From NCBI GenBank assembly GCA_026395435.1, contig JAPLYT010000012.1:1-37552 (forward strand): DNA of 37,552 nucleotides, in the 5' to 3' direction. The DNA comes from Candidatus Saccharimonadota bacterium (lineage in GTDB: Bacteria > Patescibacteriota > Saccharimonadia > Saccharimonadales > AWTP1-31). The translations under genes and the position numbers were made by a program. Below are positions 23,512 to 25,150 of this stretch, piece after piece. The notes below the pieces were generated by a model, which was given only the letters and a program-made list of their open reading frames with translations, searched no databases and was not told where the DNA came from. Every line of letters begins with the position of its first letter. Within the stretch, counting starts at the first letter, position 1.

Positions 23512-24201
23512 ATGACAACCCTAACTACAGAAATAATGCCGGAGCTCTTTAGCCGGTCTGAAATACTCATCTGGAACTTTAGCGATATCACACCCGGTGA
23601 TGCCCATAAAGATATCCAAAGATACATGGATGAACAAGAACAAAACGGTCATGATCCGCGTGACGCGTTCCACCGGCAAGCATTCAATGAGCAGGTCTTT
23701 GATCGAATCGAAAGCAGATATTTAATTGGCAGATATGCCGAAGATAGAAGCGACATCCTCCGCGGCAGCCATATGGCCGAGGAGGGCAGGACATACCATT
23801 TGGCCATGGATATATTCTCTCGAGATTTCGAGCCGGTGTTTGCACCGTGCGATGGAGAAATAGTCCGCAGCGAGTATGAGCCGGGGCTCAATAACTACGG
23901 CAACTATGTGATCATCCGGCCAGACGATGCATCGCTGCCCTATATATTTATGGGGCACCTAGATAGCACGAGGCTGCCGGTGGGCAGAGTCTCGGCCAGG
24001 CAGACCATTGCCCATCTGGGAACATTCGAGAATTTAGAAAACGGTGGTTGGAGCGTGCATGTGCATTTGCAATTACTAACCGTACTCCCGCCAGAAGGCG
24101 AGTCGCCGATCGGCTATTCCAGCCTGGCTGATCTGGAAGCAAACAAACAGCGGTTTCCAGACCCACAGGCACTATTCCCGCAGTGGAATATTACTCGCTG
24201 A
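23512..24201 (+). CDS. M23/LytM-type peptidoglycan peptidase-like protein
   Basis: HLAMDIFSRDFEPVFAPCDGEIVRSEYEPGLNNYGNYVIIRP...VHVHLQL; SD AAGGA. Confidence 0.75.
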   Translation: MTTLTTEIMPELFSRSEILIWNFSDITPGDAHKDIQRYMDEQEQNGHDPRDAFHRQAFNEQVFDRIESRYLIGRYAEDRSDILRGSHMAEEGRTYHLAMDIFSRDFEPVFAPCDGEIVRSEYEPGLNNYGNYVIIRPDDASLPYIFMGHLDSTRLPVGRVSARQTIAHLGTFENLENGGWSVHVHLQLLTVLPPEGESPIGYSSLADLEANKQRFPDPQALFPQWNITR

Positions 24202-24925
24202 GGCTGTCGTCGAGCATATGTAGTGTTTGCAAGAATTCTGCTCGCATGGCGGCAGCGTATGGATTGTGCCGTTGGATGGTTTCAAATAATTCTTGGCTGT
24301 GGTGTCGCTCGGTTTCGACGAGCGCCATGAGTTTGTCGAAGTATCCGGTGACCAGCAGAGATGGCTGAATATCCATGGTCAGCAGAGCTCGTCCAATGAA
24401 GAAGGTCAGGGCATGAACCCGGGCCATTTCTTGGTCGTGGGCGTCGGCGGTCATGTGCATGATGTTGAGCCCTTTGCTTTGCCAATCTTCGAGGAGCAGT
24501 TTGCTGGTTGGGCCTTTTTGTTCAGTCACCACAATAGACTTGCCAGCCACACCCGTCTCAATCGATTGTGGCCCAAACATCGGATGCGCCATCAGGACCG
24601 ACAGTCTATCCAGGAGTCCATGCTCCTGGAATAGTTCTGTCGGGCGGACCTTGACTGAACAGATGTCGACGATTAGGGTGTCTTTGGGTGTCAACGCGAC
24701 TACTTCGGGCACTAACGCTTCGAATGACGGGAAGGGGACGGCAAGCACGACTACGTCCGCTTGGGTGACAGCCTCGAGCCCCACCCGGCGGACCGATTCA
24801 GGGAAGGTGGCATTGGGGTTTACATCAAACCCCAATACTTCGCTGCCCGCAGGTGCCAGGTGCATGGCCACCACATTACCGAATTCACCTCCGCCAATTA
24901 CACCAAAAGTTTTTATGTTATTCAT
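24191..24925 (-). CDS. tyrA: Prephenate/arogenate dehydrogenase-like protein
   Basis: FGVIGGGEFGNVVAMHLAPAGSEVLGFDVNP...VVLAVPFPSFEALV...DICSVKVRPTELF...MAHPMFGPQS. Confidence 0.8.
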   Translation of the reverse strand: MNNIKTFGVIGGGEFGNVVAMHLAPAGSEVLGFDVNPNATFPESVRRVGLEAVTQADVVVLAVPFPSFEALVPEVVALTPKDTLIVDICSVKVRPTELFQEHGLLDRLSVLMAHPMFGPQSIETGVAGKSIVVTEQKGPTSKLLLEDWQSKGLNIMHMTADAHDQEMARVHALTFFIGRALLTMDIQPSLLVTGYFDKLMALVETERHHSQELFETIQRHNPYAAAMRAEFLQTLHMLDDSLSE

Positions 24926-24946
24926 TGTATTCTCCCAAAATGGTAT

Positions 24947-24972
24947 TAAAAAAACCGCCTGTGTGGCGGTTT
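24947..24972 (-). terminator. Attenuator-type terminator upstream of tyrA
   Basis: Minus strand AAACCGCC-ACACA-GGCGGTTT followed by T tract, then SD GGGAGAA and tyrA ATG. Confidence 0.75.
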
Positions 24973-25010
24973 GGTGTGTTCGATTTGATTGTGTTTTAAA
25001 ACATAGGTAA

Positions 25011-25067
25011 TTAGTCCGCCAAATAATAGGGGACTAGATATGATTGGGCTACGTTTAGATTAATCAT
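25011..25067 (-). CDS. Candidate leader peptide MINLNVAQSYLVPYYLAD*
   Basis: TTGACA-N17-TATGCT promoter (25103-25075), -10 ends 7 nt before ATG; three Tyr codons; followed by terminator and tyrA. Confidence 0.65.
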   Translation of the reverse strand: MINLNVAQSYLVPYYLAD

Positions 25068-25150
25068 GTTTGAAAGCATACAAGCGTAATAATTATTTGT
25101 CAAATATTTTATTTTGTACCCCTGGCGTTCCTGCGTTACACTAGATTAAT

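What the first reader, a model, noticed from the sequence alone, without database searches (positions are those of the whole stretch)
24930..25103. Tyrosine-type attenuator with a leaderless leader peptide upstream of tyrA
Minus strand: TTGACA-N17-TATGCT, then 7 nt, then ATG encoding MINLNVAQSYLVPYYLAD*, then terminator AAACCGCC/GGCGGTTT plus T tract, SD and prephenate dehydrogenase. The leader end TGGCGG can pair with CCGCCA in the terminator 5' arm, an antiterminator candidate. Stalling at the first Tyr codon would leave that segment free, whereas completing translation would cover it. Classical attenuation logic with Tyr codons in front of a Tyr-biosynthetic gene, but with an apparently leaderless leader peptide.
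Basis: partly seen in the sequence, partly recalled or inferred. Interest (0 to 1): 0.74.

Follow-up and report, generated by a model that had tools for sequence, protein, structure and literature searches.

The report
Leaderless tyrosine attenuator controlling tyrA
A short RNA switch in front of a tyrosine-making gene reads tyrosine supply by how easily a ribosome passes Tyr codons in a tiny peptide that starts right at the RNA's 5' end, and it proves to be one of a large, apparently undescribed family of such switches in very small-genome bacteria.

Summary
Confirmed and extended. All described elements are present: TTGACA-N17-TATGCT, 7 nt, ATG, an 18-aa peptide with three Tyr, a terminator, an SD and tyrA. 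A covariance model built from 3 Tyr leaders, then a second built only from 38 Trp-type leaders, uncovered a family. The second model, which does not contain the window, recovers the window at E=5e-8. In the order, 29 of 58 trpS genes have such a leader upstream; tyrS has 0 of 30. Five tyrA genes, in five families, have Tyr leaders. All 38 trpS leaders analysed contain Trp; 0 of 5 tyrA leaders do (P=1e-6). The sensor codon sits about 20 nt before the pairing segment in both kinds: one device with a swapped codon. Helices 1:2, 2:3 and 3:4 all covary; even the terminator loop covaries with the leader codons. Start codons lie 6-9 nt after the -10 box, as in many genes of this order, so leaderless starts are normal here. 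Distant relatives in the phylum have His and Trp versions before hisS, trpB and trpS. No Rfam match and no paper found. Mechanism: ribosome-mediated transcription attenuation (leaderless form known in Sinorhizobium and Streptomyces). No TSS or expression data exist.

The parts
25098..25103 (-). -35 element TTGACA
   Evidence: sequence; TTGACA-N16-18-TATNNT at this place recurs in most of 52 analysed leaders
25075..25080 (-). -10 element TATGCT; start codon follows after 7 nt, so the expected transcript begins at or within 1-2 nt of the AUG
   Evidence: order-wide peak of -10 boxes 6-9 nt before ATG
25011..25067 (-). leaderless leader peptide ORF MINLNVAQSYLVPYYLAD*
   Evidence: sequence; comparable Tyr leaders before tyrA in G255, G115, G043, G051
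25038..25040 (-). sensor codon: Tyr10 (TAT), 20 nt 5' of the region-2 core; equals the Trp position in trpS leaders (mostly 19-23 nt)
25027..25036 (-). region 1 (TAGTCCCCTA), pairs with region 2 when no ribosome covers it
   Evidence: 1:2 helix covaries in the trpS-type family; 7.1 pairs expected in free RNA
25012..25021 (-). region 2 (TGGCGGACTA): pairs with region 1 or, through TGGCGG, with region 3 (antiterminator)
24964..24969 (-). region 3 (CCGCCA): 3' half of the antiterminator; CCGCC is also the 5' arm of the terminator
24952..24972 (-). intrinsic terminator AAACCGCC-ACACA-GGCGGTTT (3:4); T tract 24954-24948
   Evidence: 3:4 helix covaries in the family
24931..24936 (-). SD-like GGGAGA of tyrA
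   Evidence: sequence
24191..24925 (-). tyrA, prephenate dehydrogenase, 244 aa

Best explanation
This is a tyrosine-responsive, ribosome-mediated transcription attenuator of tyrA whose leader peptide is translated from a leaderless transcript. RNA polymerase starts at or next to the AUG; a ribosome loads on the 5'-terminal AUG and follows it. With enough Tyr-tRNA the ribosome runs to the stop codon and covers region 2, so region 3 pairs with region 4 (terminator) and transcription stops before tyrA. When Tyr-tRNA is short the ribosome stalls at Tyr10, covers region 1 and leaves region 2 free; region 2 pairs with region 3 as it emerges, the terminator is delayed or blocked, and tyrA is transcribed and then translated from its own SD. 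Without a ribosome, 1:2 forms and termination is the default. Anatomy, conservation, codon specificity and the three alternative helices are shown by sequence; TSS, leaderless translation, stalling and Tyr response are inferred.
For: Elements present. Tyr leaders before tyrA or CM-tyrA in five families of the order. R2, trained only on trpS-type leaders, finds this site at E 5.3e-8. Trp in 38/38 trpS leaders and 0/5 tyrA leaders, Fisher 1e-6; sensor codon mostly 19-23 nt before GGCGG in both. Antiterminator: terminator-loop nucleotides, which play no part in the terminator stem, pair with the sequence's own leader codons: 102 pairs vs 72.4 (sd 5.0) when partners are permuted, 0 of 20,000. All three helices exceed shuffled and slid controls. 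Fold model: 2:3 forms in 51/51 with region 1 masked; the window goes 1:2, then 2:3, then 3:4 in the three states. Leaderless: start codon 6-9 nt after -10 in 44/52 leaders; same peak over 466 genes, nearly exclusive with SD. Leader scan: 14 of 40 trpS upstream regions, 0 of 40 on the opposite strand, 0 of 30 at tyrS.
Against: No expression, TSS or ribosome data. The window's 2:3 helix is only 6 bp, and once region 4 exists the terminator wins at equilibrium even when stalled (7.0 vs 1.4 expected pairs), so antitermination must be kinetic and may be partial. Only 5 of about 42 tyrA loci in the order sample show the leader, and one of these (L076) has no clear region 2/3. The genome lacks detectable chorismate synthase and chorismate mutase, so Tyr is not made from scratch.
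Confidence: 0.87

Rival explanations
1. A decayed attenuator: the parts are inherited, but in this genome the weak 2:3 helix no longer competes with the terminator, so it acts as a nearly constant partial terminator.
For: The 6-bp 2:3 helix loses to 3:4 at equilibrium in the stalled state; the upstream pathway to chorismate and prephenate seems absent.
Against: Promoter, Tyr codons, 20-nt geometry, 1:2, 2:3 and 3:4 are all intact, and R2 scores it at E 5e-8. Classical attenuators also rely on kinetics (general knowledge).
Confidence: 0.07
2. A small leaderless gene followed by its own ordinary terminator, with tyrA read from another promoter; the aromatic codons are incidental.
For: Promoter and terminator motifs alone are at chance level; short leaderless ORFs are plausible here.
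Against: The Trp/Tyr swap matches the downstream gene, terminator loop and leader codons covary, and the arrangement recurs before trpS, DAHP synthase, pheA and hisS.
Confidence: 0.03
3. The terminated leader RNA or the peptide also acts in trans, like rnTrpL/peTrpL of Sinorhizobium; cis attenuation is only part of the function.
For: Such dual use is documented for a leaderless trpL (PMC7298713); the peptide end YLVPYYLAD is identical in two families.
Against: Peptide conservation is explained by Tyr codons plus region 1/2 pairing; other family members keep the RNA pairing while the peptide changes.
Confidence: 0.03

Closest known systems
Sinorhizobium meliloti trpL attenuator (leaderless leader peptide)
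   Same: Leader RNA begins at the AUG of a short ORF with cognate codons; the terminator precedes the biosynthetic gene (PMC7298713).
   Different: Trp, proteobacterial, before trpE(G); no sequence relation seen (no Rfam match here).
Streptomyces lividans trpL1, trpL2 (trpS), leuL, ilvL leaders
   Same: Leaderless leader peptides, one before trpS, with proposed attenuation (PMC8079986).
   Different: Actinobacterial; trpL2 has one Trp and no U-rich tail; no Tyr version listed; the family here has a shared GGCGG/CCGCC core with three covarying helices.
Enterobacterial pheA, pheST and trp attenuators
   Same: Regions 1-4 logic (general knowledge).
   Different: Those leader peptides use an SD; Tyr genes there are under TyrR (general knowledge).
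Tyr T-box of Firmicutes
   Same: Senses Tyr charging before tyrosine genes (general knowledge).
   Different: T-box binds tRNA directly without a leader peptide; no T-box match here.

Membership tests
Ribosome-mediated (trp-type) transcription attenuator | short translated leader ORF with codons for the end product | tested here: met
   3 Tyr in 18 aa before tyrA; Trp in 38/38 trpS leaders and 0/5 tyrA leaders; translation itself not shown
Ribosome-mediated (trp-type) transcription attenuator | intrinsic terminator before the structural gene | tested here: met
   24972-24952 plus T7; covarying 3:4 helix in the family
Ribosome-mediated (trp-type) transcription attenuator | mutually exclusive antiterminator | tested here: met
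   2:3 covariation including the terminator loop
Ribosome-mediated (trp-type) transcription attenuator | sensor codons placed so that stalling masks region 1 only | tested here: met
   sensor mostly 19-23 nt from region-2 core; stalled fold gives 2:3 in 51/51
Ribosome-mediated (trp-type) transcription attenuator | read-through rises when the amino acid is short | not testable with these tools
   needs reporter or term-seq
Leaderless mRNA | start codon within a few nt of +1, no SD | tested here: inconclusive
   -10 lies 7 nt before ATG, as in most relatives and at the order-wide peak; TSS not mapped
Known Rfam leaders, T-box, riboswitches | match at Rfam gathering threshold | tested here: not met
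   only tRNAs found in the window and 16 related loci
TyrA / prephenate dehydrogenase | PDH family match with conserved His | tested here: met
   PF02153 E 4e-12, H114 invariant in 14 aligned sequences, PDB 5t95 E 3e-45; substrate preference not tested

The most novel reading that the evidence does not exclude
Leaderless leader-peptide attenuation is a main, so far undescribed way in which this phylum of reduced-genome bacteria controls amino-acid genes: one ancestral GGCGG/CCGCC device retuned by codon swap (Trp for trpS and trpB, Tyr for tyrA, mixed aromatic for DAHP synthase, His for hisS), with translation starting at the 5' AUG.
Probability: 0.7. Interest if true: 0.78.

Novelty: new variant of a known kind. 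Interest (0 to 1): 0.66.

Why it matters
These tiny, probably symbiotic genomes are generally thought to regulate little and to import amino acids. A conserved attenuator family suggests that they sense charging of specific tRNAs and adjust single genes. It gives a natural test of leaderless translation coupled to transcription, a clear case of evolution by sensor-codon swap, and a guide to which amino-acid genes are actively controlled. In this genome it controls a tyrA that seems to work on imported prephenate or a related precursor.

Tried and rejected
Rfam scan: only tRNAs. The search for related loci in genome contigs gave only distant dehydrogenases. Wider tyrA search in the two families of other Tyr-leader genomes added no new Tyr leader. 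MAFFT alignments mixing the Tyr leaders misplaced the terminators, so pairings were also located per sequence. About 15 of the weaker R1 hits were coding sequence or plain terminators and were dropped. Several phylum-wide R2 hits (G647, G609, G617, G749, G523, G716, G513 and others) look like plain terminators and were not counted. tyrS was tested as another possible Tyr target: 0 of 30 upstream regions have a leader. A Phe leader at the genome's own pheA was looked for and not seen. No phage similarity. The antisense 185-aa ORF at 24453-25010 was considered spurious and not pursued.

Full report
Observation. The minus-strand elements are all there and the coordinates are right. The promoter and terminator motifs are individually no more than chance, so conservation had to decide. 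The downstream gene is a genuine TyrA. Genomes listed from its phylum are about 0.6-2 Mb, which fits Patescibacteria; the gene content suggests Saccharimonadales. That naming is my inference and was not tested.

Tyr leaders before other tyrA genes. tyrA was found as full-length matches in 16 of 60 relatives, with weaker partial hits in others, and in 42 of 392 genomes of the order. Upstream regions were read for nearly all of these. Besides the window, four have a leaderless-looking Tyr ORF: G255 (MQRVMATTYYLVPYYLAD*), G115 (MSSIIINSTYYVRIYLADYYSVS*), G043 (VKKINVNFYYYP*, before chorismate mutase-tyrA) and G051 (MNRLTYRRLSMRNAPYYVTEDQYLHLDTL*). The five genomes belong to five families. G255, G115 and the window share GGCGG in the leader and CCGCC..GGCGG in the terminator; G043 has AGCGG and CCGCT..GGCGG. 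In most other tyrA loci the gene follows another gene closely or has a -10 box just before its own ATG (by eye).

A larger family. A covariance model (R1) from three Tyr leaders hit 79 of 392 genomes at E up to 0.5. Inspection showed about 50 real leaders, most of a second kind: a short ORF with YWF-type aromatic codons (for example MKRIQNNQYWFTDTSVAVCSVRS*), then GTGGCGG, then ACCGCC..GGCGGTTTTTT. Downstream lies trpS in 40 leader operons, often with class I DAHP synthase (13) or an Asp/Glu racemase-like gene (8) between. The window's own genome has one, G000:C15:13420-13534 minus, MNKITINNAYWFTGYSRTVYSA*, before a racemase-like gene and trpS.

Tests against circularity. (a) Starting from trpS instead of the model: 58 of 60 relatives have trpS. 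In 40 upstream regions from genomes not already counted, a rule-based scan found leaders in 14 on the sense strand and 0 on the other. With the 15 already known this makes 29 of 58. The same kind of scan at tyrS, asking for Tyr, gave 0 of 30. (b) R2, built from 38 trpS-type leaders without any Tyr leader, recovered the window site at E 5.3e-8.

Sensor codon. Trp occurs in 38 of 38 trpS leaders and in none of the 5 tyrA leaders (Fisher 1e-6). The Trp codon lies mostly 19-23 nt before the region-2 core; in the window, G255 and G115 a Tyr codon lies exactly 20 nt before it, and in G043 at 21. With a ribosome A site at that codon, region 1 is covered and region 2 is just free (footprint size from general knowledge). 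The device looks the same and the codon is swapped.

Helices. On 38 aligned trpS-type leaders all three helices covary: 1:2 score 0.196 vs 0.099 shuffled (0/500), 2:3 0.121 vs 0.089 (7/500), 3:4 0.137 vs 0.093 (0/500), each above its slid versions. The sharpest test uses nucleotides that play no part in the terminator stem: the terminator loop next to CCGCC pairs with the nucleotides just 5' of GGCGG in the same sequence's leader far more than with other sequences' leaders (102 vs 72.4, sd 5.0; 0 of 20,000 permutations; 94 vs 67.3 after removing duplicate combinations; register set from the leader motif alone). G149 changes all regions together (ATCG/CGAT, GTGGCGATCT/AGGTCGCCAC, GTCGCC/GGCGAC); G000 (its trpS leader), G002 and G004 use GGACGG/CCGTCC. 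Relatedness is not fully removed by permutation, which is a caveat.

Energetics. With region 1 masked, 2:3 forms in 51 of 51; with the ribosome at the stop, 3:4 forms in 51 of 51 (the second is partly built in, because region 2 is masked). The window steps 1:2 (7.1 expected pairs) in free RNA, 2:3 (5.8) when stalled, 3:4 (7.7) at the stop. Two reservations: in the stalled window RNA, 3:4 wins at equilibrium once region 4 is made, so 2:3 must act kinetically; and in most trpS leaders free RNA favours 2:3, so their untranslated default may be read-through, unlike the window.

Leaderless start. In 44 of 52 leaders the start codon lies 6-9 nt after the -10. Over 466 genes of at least 200 aa in fetched loci, -10 boxes peak at 6-9 nt before ATG (21-27 per position vs 4.8 background), and genes with such a box almost never have an SD (3 with both, out of 98 and 119). 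So leaderless transcripts appear common in this order and the leaderless leader is ordinary here.

Wider. In other classes of the phylum R2 hits include WW leaders before trpB (G690) and trpS (G540), HH leaders before hisS (G682) and before a nucleoside hydrolase-like gene followed by hisS (G752), and a Phe/Tyr-rich FFYFYFF leader before a gene that looks like DAHP synthase (G643; by eye only, no family model matched). Inside the order, FFYFWF precedes pheA (G011). Weaker hits are mixed with plain terminators.

Comparison. It works like, and meets the sequence-testable features of, a trp-type ribosome-mediated attenuator. Leaderless leader peptides in attenuators are known in Sinorhizobium trpL and Streptomyces trpL, leuL and ilvL. 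No Rfam family matches, and searches of the held library for attenuation or leader peptides in this phylum found nothing relevant. I know of no Tyr-codon attenuator of tyrA, but that rests on memory and an open-access library.

Metabolic context. The genome has tyrA and a prephenate dehydratase but no detectable chorismate synthase or chorismate mutase of either type. TyrA would then use imported prephenate or a related precursor (inference).

Noticed in passing
L132 (G000:C15:13420-13534, minus): Second member in the same genome: leaderless MNKITINNAYWFTGYSRTVYSA* with a GGACGG/CCGTCC antiterminator before a racemase-like gene and trpS.
   Followed up: yes
G000, whole genome: tyrA and pheA are present but no chorismate synthase or chorismate mutase was detected in a 98% complete genome: possible prephenate salvage.
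   Followed up: partly
L323 (G000:C15 about 72400-73250, minus): tyrS of this genome reads in two frames (279-aa N-terminal part, then the C-terminal part in another frame); assembly error or real break.
   Followed up: partly
466 genes in window and fetched loci: Sharp peak of -10 boxes 6-9 nt before ATG, nearly exclusive with Shine-Dalgarno motifs: leaderless mRNAs look common in this order.
   Followed up: partly
L288 (G682), L277 (G752), L271 (G690), L273 (G540): Leaderless HH leaders before hisS and WW leaders before trpB and trpS in other classes of the phylum.
   Followed up: partly
L160 (G124:C5:23493-23630): Tyr-rich leader MIFRLITRNTYYATSLKAATAAMAYRRYSY* with the family terminator before a HAD-type hydrolase; the link to tyrosine is not understood.
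   Followed up: partly
L142 (G090:C21:9572-9694), L270 (G645): Aromatic leaders before LysE/Rht-type amino-acid exporters, where induction by starvation would be odd.
   Followed up: no
L138 (G083), L141 (G019), L142 (G090), L232 (G012), L266 (G021): Two leaders of the family in one operon or close together.
   Followed up: no
L069 (G160), just upstream of tyrA: Leaderless-looking ORF MRTNTRHKLAECIGL* overlapping an ACCAATAC/GTATTGGT hairpin: a different or decayed regulator.
   Followed up: no
51 leaders: Free RNA folds to 2:3 (antiterminator) in most Trp leaders but to 1:2 in the window and G255 Tyr leaders, so the untranslated default may differ between the two kinds.
   Followed up: partly
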